Origin: Oscillospiraceae bacterium
GTDB lineage: Bacteria > Bacillota > Clostridia > Oscillospirales > Oscillospiraceae
Direction of reading: 5' to 3'
DNA length: 64,000 nucleotides
Assembly (NCBI GenBank): GCA_015068455.1
Contig: SVKO01000004.1
Location: 1-64,000, forward strand
In this document: positions 24,689 through 37,396 of the stretch, piece by piece
How the letters are laid out: every line of letters starts with the position of its first letter
Numbering within the stretch: position 1 is the stretch's first letter
Translations under genes and position numbers: made by a program
The notes under the pieces: generated by a model
What the model was told of the DNA's origin: nothing
The model's input: the letters and a program-made list of their open reading frames with translations, nothing else
The model's database searches: none

Positions 24689-24725
24689 TGGAGAAGAATT
24701 GAGAAATGAAAGAAAGGAGAAACAC

Positions 24726-27700
24726 ATGAAACGACGGATCCTTGCCTTTTTGGCGGCGCTGTGCCTGGTTCTGGGTCTGCTGCCCGCCGGCGCGCTAACG
24801 GCCCTTGCCGCCGACGGTCTGCCGGATCTGACGAACCTCCGGATCTCTGCTGAGGGCGTCATCACCTGGGATTCCTATCCCGGCGCCGCCAGATATTATT
24901 TATCCGGCGGGGAATACTGGTCCGGCGGCTGGGCGAGCGACACCGAATGCAGGTTTGACTTTGCACAGCGCCTGCGGGACGGCTACGCCCCTTCCGGCAC
25001 TTTCACGGCCCGCATCTACGCCGAAAACGACGACTACGAGGAAGTCGCCTGCAGCGAGATCACCTATACCCACACCGGCCTGGAGCGGCATCCGGCGCCG
25101 GCAAATCTGCACTGGGACGGCTATACCTGCCGCTGGGACCCGGTGGAGGAGGCCGACAATGGGTATTACGTCTACGTCTACCGGTCGGATACGGACGACT
25201 ACATCACCTCCGCCAACACGGACAAGCCGTATTATGACGCCTCCGGCAGCCTGCAGCATAAGGACTGGAACTACAGCTTCCGGGTCCAGGTCAACGGCTC
25301 GGAGACGGGCGCGCAGAGCGAATATGCCGAGTGCGGCGCCTCCATCCCGGGCCGCTTCATCTTGGGCGATCTGACGATCTCCCTGTCCGGCGATACGCTG
25401 AGCTGGACCCCCTACGTGGACACGGAGGGAAACGAGGCATACAGATATTATGTCTACCAGAGCGACAATCCCGAATATCTTGGAAGCAGCTATCTGTTCG
25501 GCGGCTCAACGGATCTGAGAAAGCTGCTGCAGATGAGCGACGCCCCCAGCGGGACCTATAAATACTGCCTCGAGGCCGAATGCCGCGAAGGCCTGGAGGT
25601 CTCCGATGTGAGCAACGAGGTGACCTACGAGTACACCGCCGAGGAGCGTCCCTGCGTGAAGATGACCGGCTATCAGACGCGCGGCGGTTACCTGAGCTAC
25701 CTGTGCCTGTACAATTCGGCCGTTTACAGCAGCGATTCGCGCACCTGCATCGTCGGCGATTCGATCCCCGTCCGTATCATCCCCTCGGAGCATTACCTGG
25801 CCAAGGGACTGCTCGTGTGTTACGGCGGCGAGGAGCACGAGGCAGGGGAGCTCCGGAAGCAGACCGACGGCAGCTTCACCGGCACCTTCCAGGTCCCGAA
25901 CGAGGATTTCTCGCTGAAGGTGCAGATGGATTATGACTACGAGGATCTCCATTCCGCCTCCGCTTCCTTCTCCATTTCTCCCGGCCAGCGGGTGAACTGG
26001 ATGAAGATCGCCTCGGGCGAGAACTGCAAAGCGAGCACGGGAATGACCTATAACGCCAATGAGCAGGCATGCTACGGGGAATTCCTGCTCCCCGGCGACA
26101 GCGTCCGGCAGATCCTGCAGTTCAAACCTGAGTACAGCTATCAGCGCTTCGCCGAGGACACGAAGGTCCAGGTCAACGGAGAAGACGCGGAGATCATCCG
26201 CCGTGACGCCGACGGCAGAGCCCTGTACGTCGCCGTTGATTTCACCGTGCCGAACGAGCCCTTCGGCCTTGAGCACAGTCCGACCTGGGATCGGATCCCC
26301 AATCTGACCGTTTCCGGCAGCGGCATGATCACATGGGACGCCTACCCCGGCGCGGCCATGTACACCGTCAGCGGCTCTTCGTTCTTCTCTTCGGATACCG
26401 TCACGGAACGCAGCTTCGACCTGGCCGCCGCCCTGCAGAAAGGGCGCGCCCCCTCCGGCTGGTATGCCGTCGAGGTCGAAGCGGAGACGGAGGATTGGGG
26501 CGTGCTCGCCTACAGCTGGATCCCGTGGTATTACGACGGCGCCGAGCGCATCGCGACGCCGCAGAATCTGCGCTGGGACGGCCATACCGCCGTGTGGGAT
26601 CCGGTGGAGGGCGCCGACGCCTACCTCGTGCGCGTCAGCAGCTATCCCGACGGATATAACGAGACCGAATACTATGCGGAAACCAATACCTTCAACCTCG
26701 GCACATTTGTGCAGGAAAAGGAGCGGAACTACGTGTTCCGCGTTCTGACCGTCCCGGAGGACGACAGGGCCTACAGCTTCTGGTCGCCGGTTTCCGAGCC
26801 GAAGCAGGGCAGGTTTATCCGCGAGCCGCTGAACGTCACCCTGGACGGCGACGTGCTGAGCTGGCCGGAGATCGTGGATACCGAGGGCAATCCCGCCGCG
26901 CACTACAATCTGTATCAGTTCGACGGGCCGACGTACCTTTACAATACGGATTACACGGACACGAGCGTGAATCTGCGCGACATGCTGGAGCTCGTCGACG
27001 CCCAGAACGGCGAGTATCGGTTCAGCGTCACCGCCTATTCCAAGGACGGATGCGAGGTTTCCCATGAAAGCGAGACCGTGACCTACGAATATACGGCCAA
27101 TTCTCGCACCACGGTCGCCCTGCAAGGTTACAGCTGCAGCAGGGGCTATACGGATTCTGTGCGGATCAACGGCACGAACATCTCGAGCTACACCAGCTAT
27201 TCCCTGACGGCGAACAAGCTCTATAATCTCTCGATCCGCCTCAGGGACCACTACGTCCTGGAGGACGTGGCCCTGCGCTATGACGGCGAGGATCACTACG
27301 ACGCCATCGCCCTGGAACGCGGGTCCGACGGCGTCTATACCTGCCGCTTCCGGGCGCCGGATAAGGATTTCAATCTCTACTTCCGGACCGAATGGGACTG
27401 GGAGGAGGTGGGCCCGGTGGACATCAGCTTCCCGGAAACTCCCGGCGCCCGCATGAGCTTCAACGAGCTGACGCCGGACGGGGAGTGCTGGACCTACGTA
27501 CAGGACCGGTGCTGCTCGGACGCGCTCAGCATCTACGGCGCGGACTATCTGCTGCCGGGGCAGAAGTGGCAGGTCACGTTCCGGCTCCAGCCCAGGGACG
27601 GCTGGAAGCGCTTCGGCGAGGAGCCCACGGTCACCGTCAACGGCAAAAAGGCCGAGGTCGTCAAGCGCAATGACGACGACCGGTATCTGTTCGTCCGCTA

Positions 27701-30416
27701 CGATTTCGAGGTTCCCCAGGCCAATGCGGTGACGCCGGAGCCCTATGACAGGGACTATCCCGCCCTGGAAAACGTGAAGGTCTCCGCACAGGGCGTCGTC
27801 ACCTGGGACGCCTACCCCGGCGCGGATCACTACTACGTCTATCACGGCGACAAGTTCAACGGCGGCGAGCAGGACGAATGCAGCTTCGATTTCCGCGCGG
27901 CGCTGGATGACGGTAAGGCACAGACCGGCTGGTACAGCTGCATCGTTACCGCCAGTGACGATGCCGACTCCACGATCGCCTGCGGCGCGGTGGCCTGGTA
28001 TTACACCGGCAGGGAGGCCCTGGCTGCGCCGACGAACCTGCGCTGGGAAGGGAACAGCGCCGTCTGGGATCCGGTGGAGGGCGCAGCCGGCTACCGCATC
28101 CAGGTGCTTTCCCTGGGCGAGCGGTACGTCGTTTACGATTCGAACCGGTCGGAAACCAGCGTCGATCTGTCCGGCACGCTGTACCATCTGGAGGACGCCT
28201 ACGCCTTCCGCGTCAATGCCTACGGGCCCTACGGCGGCGAGCTTGCGTCCAGCGCCTGGTCTCCGCTGTCGGAAAGCAGGACCGGCCGCTTCCGCATGGA
28301 GCCCATCACCATCACGCTGACCGGCGATGTATTGAGCTGGCCGGAGTACATCGATACCGAGGGCAATCCCGCCGAGTACTACTATATCGACCAGTACGGA
28401 AATCCCGAAGAATTCAACGACAGCTATTACGGCGGCACGACTTTGGATCTGCGCACGGCCCTGGAGATGGTCGATGCGCCCGACGGAGACTATACGTTCC
28501 AGATCTGCGCCTATGAGAAAAACGGCTACAAGGTCTCCGATTACAGCAACACGGTCACCTATCACTATGTGGATCAGCCCCGGTCCACGGTCCGGCTGAC
28601 CACCGATTTCGATGATCGCGGCATCCTGCTGATCAACGGGATCAAGGCCTGGAACAACGACGAATACACCATGACCGTTGGCGCGGAGGCCAGCCTGGAG
28701 CTCCAGCCGAGCGAGCGCTACCGCTTCAAGGAAGCGTACCTGGTGTTTGGCGAGGACGACAAACAGGAGATCTCCCTCACCGAGGGCGCGGACCGGATCT
28801 GCACCGGCAGCTTTACCGTTCCGAACCGAAAGTTCACACTGTTCGTCCGGGCCGAGCGCATCTATGAGAAGCTCCACTCGGTCTCCGTCGGCTTCTCAGA
28901 GGAGCCGGGCTATCTGCTGGCCATGATCGACCTCACCCCCGAAGGCACCAGGGACTGGTCGGCCCGCATCAGCGGCCTGACCGGGCCCCACGGCGCGGGC
29001 AACGCCAATCTGCGGCCCGGCGGAGAGTACGAGGCGACCGTGGACTTCTATATCTACGGCGACGACTGCCGCTTTGCCGACGACGTGGTTGCAAAGATCA
29101 ACGGGAGCACCTGCACCGCGGAGAATTGGAGCGACACCTATTTCCGCGCGACCTACAAGTTCACCGTCTCCAGTCAGGTGAGCTCCGTCGTGGTGCGGGG
29201 CGTAAAGGCCCCGGCCCTGGAGGCCCTGCCCGAGGCAAGCCTGGGCGTGCCCGGCAGCGTGTTCTATTCGATCCTCGGCGAGAACGAGGTGTCCAGCCGC
29301 TGGCGCTATAACGACGGCGCCTGGAAATGGATGACCGCCGACGAGCCCTTCCGCGCAGATATCGCCTACGTGCTGCAGATGGAGATCGCGCCGGATGAGG
29401 GATGCACCTTCGCCGAGGACGTCAGCGTTCTGGCGGAGGACGTGGACCCGGAGCGCATCGAGAGAATCAGCGTGCTCAAGAGCGGCGAGCCCGAGGGCAG
29501 CACCCGAACCGTGGAGATCACGTTCAAGCCGCTGGTCGCGCCGAAGCCCGTGAAGACGGCCGGATGCACGGTCGCCGTTCCCGTGGCGGGCGGGCATCCC
29601 GATATGTCGCCCGCGGCCCTGGATACGGAGCAGTATACCGTATCGTTGTATGGCTGGTATTGGGATATGCAGCCCGGTGTAAAGCTGACAGGCTCCAGTA
29701 CCTTTGAGACCGGCTGCACCTATGTCCTGCGGGTGGAGTTCAATCCGAAGGAAGGATATTTCTTCGATGAGGACACGGTCTTCACCATCAACGGCAAACA
29801 GACGGACAGCCGCTACGGCACGGATTACGGACAGGTGCAGATCGATCTGCCCGCCCGGGAGGAGACGCCCGACACATTCCGTTTTGAGGATGTGAAGGAT
29901 CCCGCCAAGTTCTACTTCGATCCCGTCTACTGGGCCTATGAGCATACGCCGCAGATCACCAAGGGCACCGACGACACCCACTTCGGCCCCGACAACCCCT
30001 GCACCAGAGGCCACGTGGTGACCTTCCTGTGGCGCGCCGCCGGCGAGCCGGAGCCCGCAAGCACCACAACGCCGTTCTCGGATCTGAAGCCCGGCGCCTT
30101 CTATGAGAGGGCCGTGGCCTGGGCCGTGGAGAAGGGGATCACGAAGGGCCTGACGGACACCACCTTCGGCCCGGACGCCACCTGCACCCGTGGCCAGATC
30201 GTCACCTTCCTGTGGCGCTTCAAGGACGAACCCGCCCCCGCGAGCACCACGACGCCGTTCACGGATGTGAATCCCGGCGGCTTCTACATGAAGGCCGTGG
30301 CCTGGGCCGTGGAGAACGAAGTCACGAAGGGCCTGAGCGACACCACCTTCGGCCCGGACGCCACCTGCACCAGAGGCCAGGTCGTGACCTTCCTGTACCG
30401 CGCGACGAAGGACTGA
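24726..30416 (+). CDS. Very large SLH-anchored repeat protein
   Basis: A 1,896-residue exported protein. The start is ATG 24726, after GAAAGGAGAAACAC; the signal peptide ends near LTALAAD. Three tandem repeats of about 490 residues begin near residues 33, 523 and 1011. Each opens with a fibronectin-like VITWDSYPGA / MITWDAYPGA / VVTWDAYPGA motif, then WDPVEGA, LSWPEYIDTEGNPA and a conserved VTYEYT block. After a further two beta-rich domains (residues ~1492-1715), three SLH motifs close the protein. No catalytic motif is seen, so it is probably a surface adhesin or structural protein. It is monocistronic, with terminators on both sides. Confidence 0.88.
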   Translation: MKRRILAFLAALCLVLGLLPAGALTALAADGLPDLTNLRISAEGVITWDSYPGAARYYLSGGEYWSGGWASDTECRFDFAQRLRDGYAPSGTFTARIYAENDDYEEVACSEITYTHTGLERHPAPANLHWDGYTCRWDPVEEADNGYYVYVYRSDTDDYITSANTDKPYYDASGSLQHKDWNYSFRVQVNGSETGAQSEYAECGASIPGRFILGDLTISLSGDTLSWTPYVDTEGNEAYRYYVYQSDNPEYLGSSYLFGGSTDLRKLLQMSDAPSGTYKYCLEAECREGLEVSDVSNEVTYEYTAEERPCVKMTGYQTRGGYLSYLCLYNSAVYSSDSRTCIVGDSIPVRIIPSEHYLAKGLLVCYGGEEHEAGELRKQTDGSFTGTFQVPNEDFSLKVQMDYDYEDLHSASASFSISPGQRVNWMKIASGENCKASTGMTYNANEQACYGEFLLPGDSVRQILQFKPEYSYQRFAEDTKVQVNGEDAEIIRRDADGRALYVAVDFTVPNEPFGLEHSPTWDRIPNLTVSGSGMITWDAYPGAAMYTVSGSSFFSSDTVTERSFDLAAALQKGRAPSGWYAVEVEAETEDWGVLAYSWIPWYYDGAERIATPQNLRWDGHTAVWDPVEGADAYLVRVSSYPDGYNETEYYAETNTFNLGTFVQEKERNYVFRVLTVPEDDRAYSFWSPVSEPKQGRFIREPLNVTLDGDVLSWPEIVDTEGNPAAHYNLYQFDGPTYLYNTDYTDTSVNLRDMLELVDAQNGEYRFSVTAYSKDGCEVSHESETVTYEYTANSRTTVALQGYSCSRGYTDSVRINGTNISSYTSYSLTANKLYNLSIRLRDHYVLEDVALRYDGEDHYDAIALERGSDGVYTCRFRAPDKDFNLYFRTEWDWEEVGPVDISFPETPGARMSFNELTPDGECWTYVQDRCCSDALSIYGADYLLPGQKWQVTFRLQPRDGWKRFGEEPTVTVNGKKAEVVKRNDDDRYLFVRYDFEVPQANAVTPEPYDRDYPALENVKVSAQGVVTWDAYPGADHYYVYHGDKFNGGEQDECSFDFRAALDDGKAQTGWYSCIVTASDDADSTIACGAVAWYYTGREALAAPTNLRWEGNSAVWDPVEGAAGYRIQVLSLGERYVVYDSNRSETSVDLSGTLYHLEDAYAFRVNAYGPYGGELASSAWSPLSESRTGRFRMEPITITLTGDVLSWPEYIDTEGNPAEYYYIDQYGNPEEFNDSYYGGTTLDLRTALEMVDAPDGDYTFQICAYEKNGYKVSDYSNTVTYHYVDQPRSTVRLTTDFDDRGILLINGIKAWNNDEYTMTVGAEASLELQPSERYRFKEAYLVFGEDDKQEISLTEGADRICTGSFTVPNRKFTLFVRAERIYEKLHSVSVGFSEEPGYLLAMIDLTPEGTRDWSARISGLTGPHGAGNANLRPGGEYEATVDFYIYGDDCRFADDVVAKINGSTCTAENWSDTYFRATYKFTVSSQVSSVVVRGVKAPALEALPEASLGVPGSVFYSILGENEVSSRWRYNDGAWKWMTADEPFRADIAYVLQMEIAPDEGCTFAEDVSVLAEDVDPERIERISVLKSGEPEGSTRTVEITFKPLVAPKPVKTAGCTVAVPVAGGHPDMSPAALDTEQYTVSLYGWYWDMQPGVKLTGSSTFETGCTYVLRVEFNPKEGYFFDEDTVFTINGKQTDSRYGTDYGQVQIDLPAREETPDTFRFEDVKDPAKFYFDPVYWAYEHTPQITKGTDDTHFGPDNPCTRGHVVTFLWRAAGEPEPASTTTPFSDLKPGAFYERAVAWAVEKGITKGLTDTTFGPDATCTRGQIVTFLWRFKDEPAPASTTTPFTDVNPGGFYMKAVAWAVENEVTKGLSDTTFGPDATCTRGQVVTFLYRATKD
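29875..30416 (+). repeat. SLH cassette, copy 2
   Basis: The 3' end of the 24726 gene. It encodes FRFEDVKDPAKFYFDPVYW and three SLH motifs, nearly identical to the other two cassettes, mostly differing in the Ala/Pro/Lys spacer residues between motifs. Confidence 0.85.
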
Positions 30417-30556: not shown

Positions 30557-30611
30557 CATGGTCAAATGGCGGACTGCCGCCCGGAACAACAAAAAAGACC
30601 GGAGGCGCGAA

Positions 30612-31484
30612 ATGAAACTGACAGACGTACTGAAAAAGGATAAGCTCACCCTCTCCTTTGAGGTGTTCCCCCCGAAAACCGAAACCACGCTGGAAGACGT
30701 GCTGGCCACGACGCAAAAAATCGCGGCGCTGCGTCCGGCCTTTGTCAGCGTCACCTACGGCGCCGGCGGCGGCACCAGCCGCTATACCCTGGCCATCGCG
30801 GAGAATATGTACAAGACCACCGGCGTGCCCACCCTGGCGCATCTGACCTGCATCTCTTCCACCCGGCAGACGGTGGCGGAGCGCATTGCCGACATGAAGG
30901 CCCATGGCATTGAGAACGTCATGGCCCTGCGGGGCGATCTGACCCCGGAGCAGAAGGGGAGCGACCGTTCGGACTGGGACTATCACCATGCCTGCGAGCT
31001 GGTGCGCGAGCTCAAAGCCGCGGGGGACTTCTGCATCGGCGGCGCATGCTACCCCGAGGTGCACCCCGAGAGCGTCGACAGCCGGGAGGACATTTCCCAT
31101 CTGAAGGAAAAGGTGGACGCCGGCTGCGATTTCCTGACCAGCCAGATGTTCTTCGACAACAGCCTGTACTACAGCTTCCTTTACCGCGTGCGCGAGGCGG
31201 GGATCACCGTGCCCATTTTCCCGGGCATCATGCCCATCACCTCCGCCACCCAGATCAAGCGGGCCATCGAGCTGTCCGGCTCGTTCATGCCCCACCGGTT
31301 CCTGGCTCTGGTGGATCGTTTCGGCCAGGATCCGGAGGCCATGAAGCAGGCCGGCATCGCCTACGCCACGGATCAGATCATCGATCTCTATGCCAACGGC
31401 GTCCGGAACGTCCACGTCTATACCATGAACAAGCCGGACGTGGCCGCGAAGATCATGGATAATCTTTCGGCGATCCTGAATTGA
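30612..31484 (+). CDS. metF: Methylenetetrahydrofolate reductase
   Basis: A 290-residue protein that reduces 5,10-methylene-THF to 5-methyl-THF, supplying methyl groups for methionine synthesis. Family motifs are SFEVFPPKTE at the N-terminus (catalytic glutamate), VTYGAGGGTS, ALRGD (folate/FAD site) and DFLTSQMFFD. ATG 30612 follows CCGGAGGCGCGAA. It is a single-gene unit between its own promoter and terminator. The length is that of short bacterial MetF without a regulatory domain. Confidence 0.95.
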   Translation: MKLTDVLKKDKLTLSFEVFPPKTETTLEDVLATTQKIAALRPAFVSVTYGAGGGTSRYTLAIAENMYKTTGVPTLAHLTCISSTRQTVAERIADMKAHGIENVMALRGDLTPEQKGSDRSDWDYHHACELVRELKAAGDFCIGGACYPEVHPESVDSREDISHLKEKVDAGCDFLTSQMFFDNSLYYSFLYRVREAGITVPIFPGIMPITSATQIKRAIELSGSFMPHRFLALVDRFGQDPEAMKQAGIAYATDQIIDLYANGVRNVHVYTMNKPDVAAKIMDNLSAILN

Positions 31485-31486
31485 CC

Positions 31487-31520
31487 AACTGCCTCCGGGA
31501 TGATCCCGGAGGCAGTTTTT
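31487..31520 (+). terminator. Terminator of metF
   Basis: AACTGCCTCCGGGA/TCCCGGAGGCAGTT with a TGA loop followed by TTT. Confidence 0.9.
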
Positions 31521-31566
31521 GTGATCAGTATTTTTTGACAACATCTACAAAAAAGAACATTTGTTC

Positions 31567-31595
31567 TTGACAATGTTATATAAGATGTATATAAT
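31567..31595 (+). promoter_or_regulatory. Consensus promoter of tracrRNA (and cas9)
   Basis: A perfect TTGACA (31567-31572), a 17-base spacer and a perfect TATAAT (31590-31595). The expected +1 is at about 31602, which is where the anti-repeat begins. No second promoter is obvious between the tracrRNA and cas9. Confidence 0.9.
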
Positions 31596-31601
31596 TGTAG
31601 T

Positions 31602-31694
31602 ATCTCTTATACCACAACGAGAGATAACATGTGTTACCACAATAAGGTATCACACCTCAAAGCTCTGCCCCGGCCTTTTGGCTGGGGCATCTTT
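31602..31694 (+). ncRNA. tracrRNA of the type II-C CRISPR system
   Basis: Bases 31607-31645 match the plus-strand CRISPR repeat: TTATACCACAACGAG, one change, then ATAACA, then a 2-base bulge and ACCACAA. This is the anti-repeat that pairs with the crRNA repeat. It is followed by ATAAGG, a small AGGT/ACCT hairpin, and GCTCTGCCCC with a ten-pair terminal stem (31666-31675 with 31680-31689) ending in GGGGCATCTTT. The order anti-repeat, AATAAGG, GCTCTGCCCC...GGGGCATC is the tail pattern known for Neisseria meningitidis tracrRNA (recalled, not searched). The 3' end is uncertain by a few bases, and the weak T-tract could allow read-through into cas9. Confidence 0.9.
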
Positions 31695-31722
31695 GCATCA
31701 CCTGAGCAAGGAGGCGAATGGA

Positions 31723-34700
31723 ATGGAAGGTATCCGCTATTCTCTGGGATTAGACATTGGCATTGCTTCTGTCGGCTTTGCGGTCATTCAGAACGATCTG
31801 AACGGAGAACCCATCAAGATTGAGCGGTTGGGTGTTCGTGTGTTTGACAGAGCCGAACAACCAAAGACCGGAGCGTCCCTGGCGTTGCCAAGGCGGCAGG
31901 CAAGAGGTGCCCGTCGTGTAATCCGCAGGCGCCGCCACCGTAAGGAAAGAATCAAATGGCTGATTGAAGATTCCGGATTGATGTCAAGGCCGGAACAGGA
32001 TGCGCTGTTAGGCTCAGGCGCGTTTGATAAGTCTGTTTATGAGCTTCGCGTGGAGGCGCTGGATCGCCGCCTGAGCGACGATGAAGCGGTCCGCCTGCTG
32101 ATCCATTTCGCTCAGCGCAGAGGATATAAATCAAACAGCAAAGCCGAGGAGGCTAAAGACGCGGCAGAGAGCGGAAAGGTCAAGTCTGCCATTTCCGCGA
32201 ACCGGCAGCGCATGGAGGAAAACGGTTACCGCACGGTCGGCGAAATGTTCTGGCGCGATCCGCTGTTCAAACGGACAGAGCCGGACGGCAGGCAGATTCT
32301 TGTCGTACATAATCAGCCTGGAGAATACAAGGTGACCGTAGAGCGCAGCATGCTTCTGGAAGAACTGGGTCTGATTTTTGCCAAGCAGCGGGAGCTTGGA
32401 GCAGCCTGGGCGTCAGAGCAATTTGAAGCGGCTTATACAGATATCTGGAGCAGTCAGCGCAACTTTGATGAAGGGCCCGGCGGCGACAGCCCGTACGGCG
32501 GCAGCCAGATCGGCAGGATGCTCGGAAAGTGCACCTTTGAAAAAGAGCTTGACCGCGCGCCGAAGGCCAGCTATACTGCGGAGTATTTTCGCCTCCTGCA
32601 GACTGCCAACAATCTGAAAATCGTCGGACGCGGCCAGCCTGCGGAATTTCTGGATGAAGAGCAGCGCAAGATATTTATCGACATGGCCTTTGCTTCCGCT
32701 TCGGCGACATATACGCAGCTGCGCAAAAAGCTCGATCTGCCGGATGATCTCTATTTCAACCATCTCTATTACGGAGAAAAATCCAAAGAGGAAATTGAAA
32801 AGAAAAAAATCGGCATGATGCCGTTCTATCACAAGCTGCGATCTGCCCTGAACAAGGTGGAGAAGGGCGCCGTCGAAAAACTGAGCGTCGAGCAGCGTGA
32901 TCAGATCGCAATGGTATTACTGCTCTATAAGAGCGATGATAACCGCACGGTGCATCTGCGTGAAGCGGCGATCCCGGAGAAATATATTCCCGCCATTCTT
33001 GAACTGTCTACCTCAAAAGCCGGTCATTTATCCGCGCTTGCGATGCAGAAGCTGCTGCCCTACCTGGAGCAGGGGTATACCTATGACAAGGCCTGCAAGG
33101 AGGTCTACGGCAGCCATGACGGGAAACAGGATACGGAACGCGCGCGAAAGCTGCGCATCGACATGGCCGGTGAAATCACCAATCCGGTGGTCCGGCGGGC
33201 GATCTCGCAGTCGATCAAGGTAATCAACGCCATCGTTCGGGAATACGGCCCTCCTGAAACAGTCCGGATCGAGCTGGCCAGGGAACTGGGCAAGTCCTTC
33301 GACGAACGAAACAAGCAGGAAAAGCGGATCAATGAAAACGCGGCAAAAAATGAGCAGGCACGCGCGTTGATCCGCGAGTACAAAACCGGCGGCGATCCGA
33401 CGGGTTTGGACATTGTGAAGTTCAAGCTGTTTCAGGAGCAGAACGGCGTTTGCCTTTATTCTGGAAAAAATCTGGATATTTCCCGGCTGTTTGAGGCGGG
33501 CTATGTCGACGTGGATCATATCATCCCGTACAGTATTTCCTTCGATGACAGCTATGCCAACAAAGTGCTTGTGCTCTCAAGCGAAAACCGCCAGAAAGGA
33601 AACCGAATTCCCTTTGCCTATCTCGGCGGCGATGCGGAACGCTGGAACCGGTTTGAAACTTTGGTGGGCACCCAGATCCGCAGCTTCAAGAAGAGAAAGA
33701 ATCTTCTGATGCGCTCTGTCAGCGAAGAGCAGAGCGAGGGCTTCCGGCAGCGCAATCTGGTGGATACCCAGTACCTTTCCCGCGCAATCTTCCGCCTGAT
33801 CGACGGTAATCTGGAATTTGCGCAGACGGGGAATTACAAACGGAAGACCCAGACCGTTTCCGGTGCGATCACGGCGCAGGTACGAAAGCGCCTGGGGATC
33901 GACAAGATCCGCGAGAACGGCGATCTGCACCACGCAGCGGACGCTGCTGTGATCGCCTGTATCTCTCCGGGAATGGTGCATAAGGTCACCAATTATGCTA
34001 AACGCTGTGAGCTCTACCGGGACGGACAGGGCTATATTGATTACGAGACCGGGGAGGTCATGACAAAGGAAGCCTTCGACGAAAAGTATGCGCCCCGGTT
34101 CCCGGAGCCCTGGCCCATGTTCCGCAAGGAGCTGGATGCCCGCCTCAGCGACGATCCCCGGGCGGAGATCGAGCATCTGAATCTTCCGGGGTACGACAGT
34201 GACGAGGAACTGCGCCCTGTGTTCGTATCCCGGATGCCGCGGCATAAGGTCACCGGCGCCGCCCATATGGAGACGATCCGCAGCGGAAAGGTTCCCGGCT
34301 CCACCGTGACAAAAACAGACCTGACGAATCTGAAGCTGGATAAAAACGGAGAGATCGCGGGCTACTACCGCCCGGAGGACGATCCCCTGCTTTATGAAGC
34401 GCTGAAAGCAAGACTGCGCGAATTCGGCAACGACCCAAAGAAGGCCTTTGCCGAACCTTTCCACAAGCCGAAGCATGACGGCACGCCCGGGCCTCTGGTG
34501 AAGAAGGTCAAGATTGTTAGTGTTAGCCCACTGAATGTGCAGGTCAATGGCGGTCTTGCCGCAAACGCCGGCATGATCCGTGTGGATGTATTCCACGTTG
34601 AGGATGACGGCTATTATTTTGTCCCAATATATATCTCGGATACGGTCAAGGATCAACTCCCAAACCGAGCGCCAGTGGCACATAAACCCTATTCTGAGTG

Positions 34701-35016
34701 GAAGGTCATGCGCGATGAGGATTTTTTGTTCTCCATGTATTCAGGAGATATGATTCGAGTCTCAAGGGAAAAAGAAATCATTATTAAAGCTCCAAGGGGT
34801 TCTACGGGTGAACCAGTTAGAAGTGTTAAAGACTCCCTCTTTTACTTTTGCGAATTTGATAGGGCTTCTGCTGCGTTTTCGGTTCAACTGCATGACCGCA
34901 GTTACGAAGGACGTGGTTTGGGAAAAACACTGTCGCTAATCGAAAAGTATCAGGTGGATGTGCTGGGTAATTACTCTCCTGTACGTCTGCCGGAGAAGCG
35001 TATGGGATTCCGTTGA
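31723..35016 (+). CDS. cas9: CRISPR-associated endonuclease Cas9, type II-C
   Basis: The start is ATG 31723 with AAGGAGG at 31708-31714; the longer frame would run through the tracrRNA. The 1,097-residue protein has the RuvC-I motif LGLDIGIASVGFAV (D11), an arginine-rich bridge helix (RRRRHRKERIKWL), RuvC-II RIELARELGKS (E517), an HNH domain with DVDHIIPYS (D598, H599) and RuvC-III HHAADAAVIA (H736, D740). All nuclease residues are present, so it should cut both strands. The C-terminus keeps the compact II-C wedge/PAM-interacting region with RMPRHKVTGAAH and EKYQVDVLGN, close in layout to Geobacillus and Neisseria Cas9 (recalled). From about 34500 onward the gene becomes markedly AT-rich (about 38-50% G+C against about 60% earlier). 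Confidence 0.97.
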   Translation: MEGIRYSLGLDIGIASVGFAVIQNDLNGEPIKIERLGVRVFDRAEQPKTGASLALPRRQARGARRVIRRRRHRKERIKWLIEDSGLMSRPEQDALLGSGAFDKSVYELRVEALDRRLSDDEAVRLLIHFAQRRGYKSNSKAEEAKDAAESGKVKSAISANRQRMEENGYRTVGEMFWRDPLFKRTEPDGRQILVVHNQPGEYKVTVERSMLLEELGLIFAKQRELGAAWASEQFEAAYTDIWSSQRNFDEGPGGDSPYGGSQIGRMLGKCTFEKELDRAPKASYTAEYFRLLQTANNLKIVGRGQPAEFLDEEQRKIFIDMAFASASATYTQLRKKLDLPDDLYFNHLYYGEKSKEEIEKKKIGMMPFYHKLRSALNKVEKGAVEKLSVEQRDQIAMVLLLYKSDDNRTVHLREAAIPEKYIPAILELSTSKAGHLSALAMQKLLPYLEQGYTYDKACKEVYGSHDGKQDTERARKLRIDMAGEITNPVVRRAISQSIKVINAIVREYGPPETVRIELARELGKSFDERNKQEKRINENAAKNEQARALIREYKTGGDPTGLDIVKFKLFQEQNGVCLYSGKNLDISRLFEAGYVDVDHIIPYSISFDDSYANKVLVLSSENRQKGNRIPFAYLGGDAERWNRFETLVGTQIRSFKKRKNLLMRSVSEEQSEGFRQRNLVDTQYLSRAIFRLIDGNLEFAQTGNYKRKTQTVSGAITAQVRKRLGIDKIRENGDLHHAADAAVIACISPGMVHKVTNYAKRCELYRDGQGYIDYETGEVMTKEAFDEKYAPRFPEPWPMFRKELDARLSDDPRAEIEHLNLPGYDSDEELRPVFVSRMPRHKVTGAAHMETIRSGKVPGSTVTKTDLTNLKLDKNGEIAGYYRPEDDPLLYEALKARLREFGNDPKKAFAEPFHKPKHDGTPGPLVKKVKIVSVSPLNVQVNGGLAANAGMIRVDVFHVEDDGYYFVPIYISDTVKDQLPNRAPVAHKPYSEWKVMRDEDFLFSMYSGDMIRVSREKEIIIKAPRGSTGEPVRSVKDSLFYFCEFDRASAAFSVQLHDRSYEGRGLGKTLSLIEKYQVDVLGNYSPVRLPEKRMGFR

Positions 35017-35017
35017 A

Positions 35018-35443
35018 ATGGAATTCCGGAATATCATCGTATCCAGGCCTGCCCGGCTAAGCATCCGGCACAATCAGCTCTGTATCAAGCAGGAGCAGGA
35101 GATCCTGATCCCGCTGGAAGATATTTGCACATTGATGCTGGAGTCCCGTCAGATCCAGATTTCTGCTGCTGCCATGGAGGAGCTCGCCGTGCAGGGCGTC
35201 ACGGTGTTCCTCTGTGACGCCCAGCATATGCCCTCAGCGCAGCTTCTGGCATTCAATCAGTTCAGCAGGAAGAAAAAACTGCTCCGCGCCCAGATCGAGT
35301 TGGGAAAACCTCTGCAAAAACAGCTCTGGAAGACGATCGTCCAGCAGAAGATACGAAATCAGGCGGCATGCCTGCGCTATCTGGGAAAGAGCGGCGCGGA
35401 TGAACTGGACGATCTGGCGGAGAGCGTGCGTTCCGGCGACGCG
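35018..35443 (+). pseudogene. cas1: cas1, truncated by internal deletion
   Basis: The start ATG 35018 lies one base after the cas9 stop. About 142 residues of a type II Cas1 are readable: the N-terminal beta domain (LSIRHNQLCIKQEQEILIPLEDI, ISAAAMEELAVQGVTVFLCD) and the start of the helical domain up to LAESVRSGDA. The conserved continuation (NREA... with the catalytic E, H and D/E residues of the helical domain) is absent. At about 35440-35446 the sequence jumps to cas2 in another frame, so translation runs on nonsense to a stop at 35539. Usual Cas1 length is about 290-300 residues, so roughly half including all metal ligands is missing. Spacer integration cannot work from this copy. Confidence 0.9.
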
Positions 35444-35687
35444 GTTTCGCAATTTCCTGCTGAAGGACGGGTATCACATGGTGCAGTATTCCGTTTATGC
35501 CCGCATCTGCGCCGGGGCGGACTCGGTTCAGACGCATAAGGATCGATTATACCGTGCGCTGCCCCGTAAAGGCGCCGTGCGGATGCTGGTGGTGACGGAG
35601 AAGCAGTTCAATGCCATTGAGATCCTGGTGGGGCCGTCAACGGTCTATGATACACCACAGACCCAGGCGCAATTGATGGAATTTTAA
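35442..35687 (+). pseudogene. cas2: cas2, 5'-truncated remnant
   Basis: In the frame +1 relative to cas1, about 81 residues of Cas2 are intact: RFRNFLLKDGYHMVQYSVYA, KDRLYRALPRKGAVRMLVVT and KQFNAIEILVG, ending QAQLMEF. The first ~20 residues of a normal ~100-residue Cas2, including the FDLP strand with the conserved aspartate, are missing, and there is no ribosome site or start codon at the junction. It is joined directly to the cas1 fragment, so a single deletion of roughly 500-550 bp (inferred from usual family lengths) removed the cas1 3' half and the cas2 5' end. Confidence 0.9.
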
Positions 35688-35740
35688 AATTCTTTCCCGG
35701 TGCGAATGGATTTACCGGGAAAAGAACGAAATAACAAAAA

Positions 35741-35778
35741 AACGGAACAGCTCCCAGTCTTGGGAGCTGTTCCGTTTT
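35741..35778. terminator. Bidirectional terminator between cas2 remnant and array
   Basis: A 16-bp perfect stem AACGGAACAGCTCCCA/TGGGAGCTGTTCCGTT with a GTCT loop, A-run on the left and TTTT on the right. It would stop cas transcripts coming from the left and minus-strand array transcripts coming from the right. Confidence 0.9.
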
Positions 35779-35850
35779 GGGCGGATTCAGCAAAGAAACG
35801 GCGGAAAAGCCGTGCTGAATGTTTGTGATTTTGCGCGCCCTGTTAAGCCT

Positions 35851-36545
35851 ATTATACCACAACGAAAAATAACAGGGAACCACAACACCCGGACTACAAC
35901 AAGGTCAACTACGGCGATTATACCACAACGAGAAATAACAGGGAACCACAACAGACGGGACAATTCCTGCAAGAGGCCTGTGATTATACCACAACGAGAA
36001 ATAACAGGGAACCACAACCTACGGTGATCAGCAGGCCAGTCTGTTCGGATTATACCACAACGAGAAATAACAGGGAACCACAACAGGACTCTTGCTGACA
36101 AACAAGCGAATGAGATTATACCACAACGAGAAATAACAGGGAACCACAACGTACTCCAGCTGATCGTCGGAGCTGACTCGATTATACCACAACGAGAAAT
36201 AACAGGGAACCACAACCAAGTGGAACGATCCCACGAACTTCAGCGTATTATACCACAACGAGAAATAACAGGGAACCACAACCCATGTAGCAGATGTACT
36301 TGCACCCTACAGATTATACCACAACGAGAAATAACAGGGAACCACAACATACATATAGCCAAACAATTCTTCGGAATTATTATACCACAACGAGAAATAA
36401 CAGGGAACCACAACCTTGCTTTTGGGCTTGTTTTTTTTTCTGAATTATACCACAACGAGAAATAACAGGGAACCACAACTCCCCTCAACGCTGCCTCCGC
36501 TTCCTCGCGATTATACCACAACGAGAAATAACAGGGAACCACAGC
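35851..36545 (-). CRISPR. Type II-C CRISPR array, 11 repeats and 10 spacers
   Basis: The 36-bp repeats begin at 35851, 35917, 35983, 36049, 36115, 36181, 36247, 36313, 36379, 36444 and 36510. Spacers are 30 bp except 36415-36443 (29 bp). On the minus strand the repeat starts GTTGTGGTTCCC and ends GTTGTGGTATAAT, as in Neisseria-type II-C repeats. The repeat at 35851 has one internal change (G to A at the CGAGAAA block), the one at 36510 has one change near its outer end; the nine inner ones are identical. I call the strand minus because the anti-repeat in the tracrRNA (plus strand) is complementary to minus-strand repeat RNA. Each repeat ends in TGGTATAAT, an extended -10 promoter pointing into the adjacent spacer. 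Confidence 0.97.
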
Positions 36546-36573
36546 CGGAAAAGAAGCGACCGGCGGCGTCCCA

Positions 36574-37017
36574 TTATTTCCAGTGCTTCAGGCCGGAGAG
36601 ATAGCCGTCATAGCTGCTCCGGCGCGCCTCGTCGGACAGGTTTTCCGGATTCGGCATGTGTCCCATGAGGAAATCGAGCAGGGCGTCCTTGGACTTATAA
36701 GTAAACGCGCCGTCTGTATAGCACCATTTGCAGTAGTCCTCGTTGAAGCTGCCGTCGGGCTCCCGGCTGATCTGCCCGTCCTCGCCCAGGGGCATGCCGC
36801 AGCACTGGCAGACCAGGGCGCGGGGCGAGCCCAGCAGGGTGTTGATGGATACGTCAAATTCCCGGGAAAGCAGTTTCAGCGTCTCTGTGTTGGGCTGGGT
36901 CTCCCCGGTCTCCCAGCGGCTGACCGCCTGCCGGGTGACCAGCACGCGCTGGGCAAGCTCCGTCTGCGTCAGATTGCGCGCCTCGCGCAGCTGCTTCAAA
37001 AGCTGTTTCATTTCCAT
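36574..37017 (-). CDS. XRE-family regulator with zinc-ribbon domain
   Basis: A 147-residue protein. Minus-strand GGAGGGAACGAA before ATG 37017 fixes the start. The N-terminal XRE helix-turn-helix (residues ~5-60) contains TQTELAQRVLVTRQAVSRWE. A zinc-binding region follows with CQCCGMPL and CKWCYTDG (four cysteines in two CxxC pairs), of the putative zinc-ribbon type often fused to XRE domains in Firmicutes. Its target is unknown. The stop codon is only 28 bases from the CRISPR array, on the strand from which the array is transcribed, with no terminator between them. Confidence 0.88.
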   Translation of the reverse strand: MEMKQLLKQLREARNLTQTELAQRVLVTRQAVSRWETGETQPNTETLKLLSREFDVSINTLLGSPRALVCQCCGMPLGEDGQISREPDGSFNEDYCKWCYTDGAFTYKSKDALLDFLMGHMPNPENLSDEARRSSYDGYLSGLKHWK

Positions 37018-37396
37018 TTCGTTCCCTCCGTTTTTTGTTTTCTCCATGGTAGCACAGGATGCCGGAGCGCGCAAGCAACCCGCAGTTGCCCGGCGCTGCA
37101 TGCAAAACGGCGGGGGAACGGCCGGATCATCCCGGCGCGTCCGATCCTCCGGATGATATGTAGGGGCCGGCGCATTTGTCGGTAAAACTGCGTTCATGAT
37201 GCCGTGATACCCGCGCAAAGCCCCCTGGCTGCTTCACGCGCAGCCGGAGCTTTGCGGGATGCAGCCGTTCGCGCCGTCCGCTGTTTGCGCGGCGCCCTTG
37301 GCCGGTGTTCCGGCCCGACGGTAGCTTGCCCCGGATTTCGCAGGTTATCCCGGAAAAACCTTCCGCATATGCTTGGACGAAAGGGGAGGGATGCTC
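37018..37396. other. Gene-free interval with a compound hairpin
   Basis: A long imperfect palindrome at 37209-37259 (ACCCGC.CAAAGC ... GGCTGC/GCAGCC ... GCTTTGCGGG) could be a REP-like element or a structured leader. The rest holds the promoter sides of the XRE gene (left) and bofA (right) with no gene I can support. Confidence 0.5.

What the first reader, a model, noticed from the sequence alone, without database searches (positions are those of the whole stretch)
35018..35687. cas1 and cas2 are fused out of frame by an internal deletion, so the CRISPR adaptation module is dead
Seen in sequence: Cas1 is readable for ~142 residues (to LAESVRSGDA, 35443) and then the frame changes; from 35442 the other frame reads Cas2 (RFRNFLLKDGYHM... 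to the end at 35687). The Cas1 catalytic helical half and the Cas2 start with its conserved FDLP-type strand are absent. Inference: a single deletion of about 500-550 bp joined the two genes. Cas9, tracrRNA and the array are intact, and nine of eleven repeats are identical, so the loss may be recent. The locus would be able to interfere but not to learn new spacers, unless Cas1/Cas2 come from another locus.
Basis: partly seen in the sequence, partly recalled or inferred. Interest (0 to 1): 0.8.

Follow-up and report, generated by a model that had tools for sequence, protein, structure and literature searches.

The report
CRISPR-Cas9 locus that stopped learning
A deletion of about 545 bases has joined the remains of the two genes that record new infections in this bacterium's CRISPR-Cas9 locus, so it can probably still cut remembered invaders but not memorise new ones; the same loss, through different deletions, is seen in several related bacteria.

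Summary
Cas1 reads from 35018 to about 35443 (142 of ~299 residues). Cas2 reads in another frame to 35687, without its first ~24 residues. Intact relatives place the same two points 543-546 bp further apart, so one deletion explains the junction, probably between short repeats (at least GCGAC). The three Cas1 catalytic residues are gone, and the 99.7%-complete genome has no other cas1 or cas2. Cas9, the tracrRNA region, the terminator and an 11-repeat array are intact, so interference without adaptation is the best reading. The remnants have not diverged faster than intact homologues, so the deletion is recent. The leader-side repeat (35851), which acquisition would copy, carries a private mutation, consistent with arrest.

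It is not a one-off. Among 30 assessable loci with a closely related Cas9, 8 lost cas1 and/or part of cas2 by deletions with different junctions (5 of 22 in draws not chosen for this). All eight keep full-length Cas9 and an array, none has another intact cas1, and their arrays tend to be shorter. CRISPR loci lacking adaptation genes are known; the graded series makes this moderately interesting. Assembly error is unlikely but was not excluded by reads.

The parts
31567..31595 (+). promoter in front of the tracrRNA region and cas9: TTGACA-17-TATAAT
   Evidence: 12 of 12 consensus match; not tested for function
31602..31695 (+). tracrRNA region: anti-repeat (31607-31629 matches the repeat at 96%) followed by a GC-rich hairpin; ends approximate
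   Evidence: own-genome match of the array to 31607-31629; sequence; no Rfam family at gathering threshold
31723..35016 (+). cas9, 1097 aa from the ATG, with RuvC and HNH motifs (LDIGIASVG, IELARE, DHIIP, HHAADA)
   Evidence: TIGR01865 774 bits over the full model; motifs
35018..35443 (+). cas1 5' fragment, residues 1-142; equivalents of catalytic E149/H206/E221 deleted; the frame continues out of register to 35539
35434..35443 (+). deletion junction CGGCGACGCG, of which at least GCGAC (35436-35440) can be read as belonging to both parents (microhomology, inferred)
   Evidence: codon comparison with relatives
35442..35687 (+). cas2 3' fragment, last 81 residues and stop; start codon and first about 24 residues deleted; out of frame with cas1
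35739..35778 (-). 18-bp hairpin terminator between cas2 and array, retained
   Evidence: sequence of the same interval in relatives
35851..35886 (-). leader-side (cas2-proximal) repeat with a private G-to-A change
35851..36545 (-). CRISPR array, 11 repeats of 36 nt and 10 spacers of 29-30 nt; crRNA strand is minus (inferred), repeat ends in TGGTATAAT (extended -10)
   Evidence: strand inferred from the anti-repeat

Best explanation
This is a type II-C CRISPR-Cas9 locus that recently lost adaptation through one 543- or 546-bp deletion, probably between short direct repeats in cas1 and cas2. The deletion removes the Cas1 catalytic half and the Cas2 start, so no Cas1-Cas2 integrase can form and no new spacers can be added. 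Cas9, tracrRNA region, terminator and array remain, so crRNA-guided cutting of the ten stored targets should continue as a fixed memory. The same outcome has arisen through other deletions in related loci, which keep Cas9 and the array while cas1-cas2 erodes. Shown: the deletion, the missing parts, absence of another cas1 or cas2, intact Cas9 and array, and the recurrence. Inferred: the microhomology mechanism, dead adaptation, working interference, and selection to keep interference.
For: Frames and domains; deletion size from six intact relatives; only one cas1 and one cas2 hit in the genome, both these fragments. E149, H206 and E221 are the active sites of a II-C Cas1, and deletion of cas1 or cas2 abolished acquisition in Riemerella (PMC6008519). 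Full-length Cas9 with catalytic motifs. Relative-rate check: the Cas1 fragment is 51.8, 53.2 and 53.2% identical to G349, G345 and G135, against 50.4, 53.2 and 53.2% for intact sister G255. Leader-side repeat mutated while the next nine are identical. Other deletions with retained Cas9 and array: G329 and G288, G542 and G725, G806, G784 and G1047. No other intact cas1 in any of them. Arrays shorter in the broken set (near clade, two-sided p = 0.025).
Against: Reads over the junction were not available. Interference was not tested, and the spacers tried matched no phage, plasmid or viral contig, so targets are unknown. The array comparisons are small: leader-side repeat mutated in 3 of 8 broken versus 1 of 18 intact arrays, p = 0.07; non-terminal repeats mutated 6 of 54 versus 9 of 237, p = 0.04, with repeats of one array not independent. 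Adaptation by Cas1-Cas2 from a mobile element in other strains is not excluded.
Confidence: 0.87

Rival explanations
1. The junction is an assembly or library artefact and the real genome has intact cas1-cas2.
For: No read data could be inspected; the assembly has 12 contigs.
Against: The deletion joins two sites sharing only about 5-10 bp, too little to collapse in ordinary assembly, so a read spanning the junction would normally be needed (inference). Similar losses with other junctions occur in independent genomes.
Confidence: 0.06
2. The whole locus is decaying neutrally; cas9 and array are merely not yet hit, and interference is not maintained.
For: The adaptation genes are dead, and G209 shows a locus in which cas9 also decayed: on its contig C77 only a cas9 3' piece and a cas1 5' piece remain. 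In the window itself the deletion is recent, so an intact Cas9 here says little.
Against: In eight loci the deletions fall in cas1-cas2 (about 1.2 kb) and never in cas9 (about 3.3 kb); by length alone the chance is 2.8e-5, although searching with Cas9 favours loci that keep it. In G725, G784 and G806 the adaptation genes are nearly gone while Cas9 keeps about 1085 open codons and its catalytic motifs.
Confidence: 0.25
3. Adaptation continues in trans, using Cas1-Cas2 from another locus or a mobile element.
For: Trans use of II-C Cas1 by another locus is documented in Flavobacterium columnare (PMC8092290).
Against: No other cas1 or cas2 profile hit in the genome, nor another intact cas1 in the other seven deleted-set genomes; mutated leader-side repeat and short arrays.
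Confidence: 0.04
4. The frameshifted fusion is a new functional protein, for example a Cas1-Cas2 chimera made by ribosomal frameshifting.
For: In-frame Cas1-Cas2 remnants exist in G329, G725 and G784.
Against: Out of frame here; catalytic residues and the Cas2 N-terminal strand are missing; junctions differ in every relative, and about half are in frame, close to what chance gives for so few.
Confidence: 0.02

Closest known systems
Type II-C CRISPR-Cas (Riemerella anatipestifer, Campylobacter jejuni, Neisseria type)
   Different: cas1 and cas2 are joined by a deletion and cannot form an integrase
CRISPR loci lacking adaptation genes (e.g. subtype I-E of Streptomycetaceae, PMC8730458; VI-B of F. 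columnare, PMC8092290)
   Same: array and effector kept, cas1-cas2 absent or dead
   Different: no second Cas1 in the genome and visible remnants at several stages of erosion among relatives
Incomplete CRISPR loci of Bifidobacterium longum (PMC5626976)
   Same: loci described as incomplete, II-C among the subtypes discussed
   Different: there incomplete assembly was one offered explanation; here the deletion is inside continuous sequence with both remnants readable

Membership tests
Type II-C CRISPR-Cas locus | Cas9 of the Csn1 family with RuvC and HNH motifs | tested here: met
   TIGR01865 774 bits, full model; motifs
Type II-C CRISPR-Cas locus | tracrRNA with an anti-repeat | tested here: met
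   31607-31629 matches the repeat at 96%, behind a consensus promoter; transcription not tested
Type II-C CRISPR-Cas locus | no csn2 or cas4 beside cas1-cas2 | tested here: met
   cas9, the cas1 and cas2 fragments and the array are contiguous with no further gene between them
Type II-C CRISPR-Cas locus | functional cas1 and cas2 | tested here: not met
   both truncated and out of frame; a II-C locus by effector, layout and relatives, but a defective one
Cas1 integrase (type II) | catalytic E149, H206, E221 | tested here: not met
   fragment ends at residue 142; residues named in PMC6008519
Cas2 | N-terminal strand with FDLP and start codon | tested here: not met
   match begins at profile position 16; relatives have FDLPVKT before it
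Interference-only CRISPR locus | target cutting with stored spacers | not testable with these tools
   needs a plasmid or phage assay; no protospacer found

The most novel reading that the evidence does not exclude
In this branch of type II-C, loss of adaptation with retention of interference is repeatedly favoured, so that fixed-memory Cas9 loci are a recurrent, selectively maintained state rather than loci on the way to disappearance.
Probability: 0.3. Interest if true: 0.62.

Novelty: new member of a known kind. Interest (0 to 1): 0.4.

Why it matters
A single broken cas1-cas2 pair is ordinary. A graded set of related loci, from a one-base frameshift (G155) through this deletion to near-complete erasure of cas1-cas2 (G725, G784, G806) with Cas9 kept, lets one test whether CRISPR memory is worth keeping after the ability to learn is lost. 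It is also a warning for annotation: each fragment here still passes its family cut-off, so such loci are easily counted as complete.

Tried and rejected
The only other genome held of the genus has no match to this stretch, so strain comparison was not possible. Spacers: the array against phages and plasmids gave no match, and 22-base halves of seven spacers against viral contigs gave none. Rfam gave no match over 31000-37000. Repeat-mutation statistics point towards arrest but are weak; the count for G969 used a wrong first base and is corrected. G155's one-base frameshift sits next to a run of A and may be a sequencing error, so it is not counted. G209 is a more generally decayed locus with another cas1 elsewhere and is not counted. 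G884 belongs to a distant Cas9 clade and is mentioned separately. G638's matches are distant Cas9 without cas1-cas2 or array and were left out. A functional fusion was considered and rejected because the frames and missing residues exclude an integrase.

Full report
WHAT IS THERE. The window holds a type II-C locus in the order tracrRNA region, cas9, cas1 fragment, cas2 fragment, terminator, array. cas9 runs from the ATG at 31723 to 35016 and matches the Cas9 model over its full length, with RuvC and HNH motifs present. Upstream lie a 12-of-12 consensus promoter at 31567-31595 and an anti-repeat at 31607-31629. cas1 starts at 35018, one base after the cas9 stop, and reads 142 residues. The other frame then reads the last 81 residues of Cas2 to 35687. 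An 18-bp hairpin terminator at 35739-35778 is kept. The array has 11 repeats, nine identical.

THE DELETION. In relatives with intact genes, Cas1 has about 299 residues, cas2 follows directly, and Cas2 reads M...RILVFFDLPVKTK...AATRFRNFLL. The distance from the end of the Cas1 'GD' motif (ND in two of them) to the residue before FRNF/FRKF is 544 bp in G255, G252, G040 and G349 and 547 bp in G345 and G135; in the window it is 1 bp. The deletion is therefore 543 or 546 bp. Because cas1 and cas2 lie in different frames in relatives, a deletion of a multiple of three still leaves them out of frame. At the junction, GGC GAC (Cas1 frame, G D) and GCG ACG CGG (Cas2 frame, A T R) overlap. Both readings agree with relatives, so at least GCGAC and perhaps up to CGGCGACGCG was shared by the two parent sites. 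This is inferred, since no intact sister strain is held.

WHAT IS LOST. In a II-C Cas1, residues E149, H206 and E221 are the active sites, and deletion of cas1 or of cas2 abolished spacer acquisition (Riemerella anatipestifer, PMC6008519). All three lie beyond residue 142 here. The Cas2 start and first strand are missing. Profile searches find no other cas1 or cas2 in the genome. Adaptation from this genome's own genes is therefore very unlikely.

AGE. Intact sister G255 and the window fragment are about equally far from the outgroup Cas1s (50.4, 53.2, 53.2 versus 51.8, 53.2, 53.2% identity to G349, G345, G135), and neither fragment has gained a stop or frameshift beyond the junction. The deletion is recent relative to the divergence of these lineages.

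WHICH END LEARNS. [quoted passage not shown] also PMC12638026, and PMC12080349). In the relatives here the degenerate oldest repeat lies at the cas-distal end, which agrees. In the window the cas2-side repeat carries a change that the next nine lack. Acquisition copies the leader-side repeat, so nothing is likely to have been acquired since that change arose. Across loci the leader-side repeat is mutated in 3 of 8 broken and 1 of 18 intact arrays (p = 0.07), and non-terminal repeats are mutated in 6 of 54 versus 9 of 237 (p = 0.04). Repeats of one array are not independent, so this is suggestive only.

RECURRENCE. Cas9 searches over family and order draws and further families gave 30 assessable loci of the same Cas9 clade (29 in the tree plus G701). 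Eight have lost adaptation by deletion. G000: Cas1 1-142 with Cas2 from about residue 24. G329: Cas1 1-22 joined in frame to Cas2 from about 32. G288: Cas1 1-107, then the array, no Cas2. G542: a mid-Cas1 piece (167-202) with Cas2 from 53. G725: Cas1 1-28 joined in frame to Cas2 from 73. G806: Cas2 from about 54 after a few Cas1 codons. G784: about 12 Cas1 codons joined in frame to Cas2 from about 68. G1047: cas1 gone, cas2 intact. In the two draws not chosen for this purpose the figure is 5 of 22; the later families were chosen because a member looked broken or intact, so 8 of 30 is not an unbiased rate. On a Cas9 tree of 34 rows, which includes G884 of a distant clade, the label needs at least 6 changes, and the junctions all differ. 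None of these genomes holds another intact cas1. Arrays that are complete in the assembly tend to be shorter in the broken set (4-13 repeats, against 4-37; p = 0.025 in the near clade, 0.004 with the distant clade).

MECHANISM AND STATUS. The best reading is interference without adaptation: stored spacers are still transcribed from the minus strand, perhaps from the extended -10 at the end of each repeat (seen in sequence; II-C repeat promoters are described in PMC12638026), pair with tracrRNA and guide Cas9. That Cas9 stays open and catalytically complete in loci where cas1-cas2 is almost erased argues that interference is kept by selection. The search was made with Cas9 and so favours loci that keep it, and neutral decay remains the main rival (confidence 0.25). 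Targets are unknown: no match in phage and plasmid records or, for seven spacers, in viral contigs, and no self-target in the genome.

VERDICT. As a single case it is an ordinary disabled adaptation module. The recurrence in one Cas9 clade raises it to moderate interest. No publication describing this recurrence was found in the searches made, but the library holds only open-licence papers.

Noticed in passing
L053 (G329), L067 (G288), L111 (G542), L112 (G725), L150 (G806), L151 (G784), L156 (G1047): Related II-C loci with full-length Cas9 and array but cas1 and/or cas2 reduced by deletions with different junctions; three keep in-frame Cas1-Cas2 remnants.
   Followed up: yes
L159 (G884): Distant Cas9 clade (repeat with TCTGATGGATATTGATAAACTT): cas1 not found and cas2 frameshifted, while four relatives of that clade keep cas1 and cas2.
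   Followed up: partly
L083, L084 and L068 (G209): One genome with a cas9 split over two contigs followed by a single degenerate repeat, a separate locus with only a cas9 3' piece and a cas1 5' piece, and another cas1 (in two hits) on a third contig.
   Followed up: partly
L155 (G969): Array with cas1-cas2 intact in which four of seven repeats carry different one- or two-base changes, including the leader-side one; unlike the other intact arrays seen.
   Followed up: no
window 24699-30416 (+): A 1905-aa predicted secreted repeat protein whose end looks like S-layer homology domains, upstream of a methylenetetrahydrofolate-reductase-like gene (30558-31484); judged by eye only.
   Followed up: no
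window 36574-37218 (-): Helix-turn-helix regulator-like gene with a zinc-ribbon-like C-terminal part ends beside the old end of the array, running towards it; judged by eye only.
   Followed up: no
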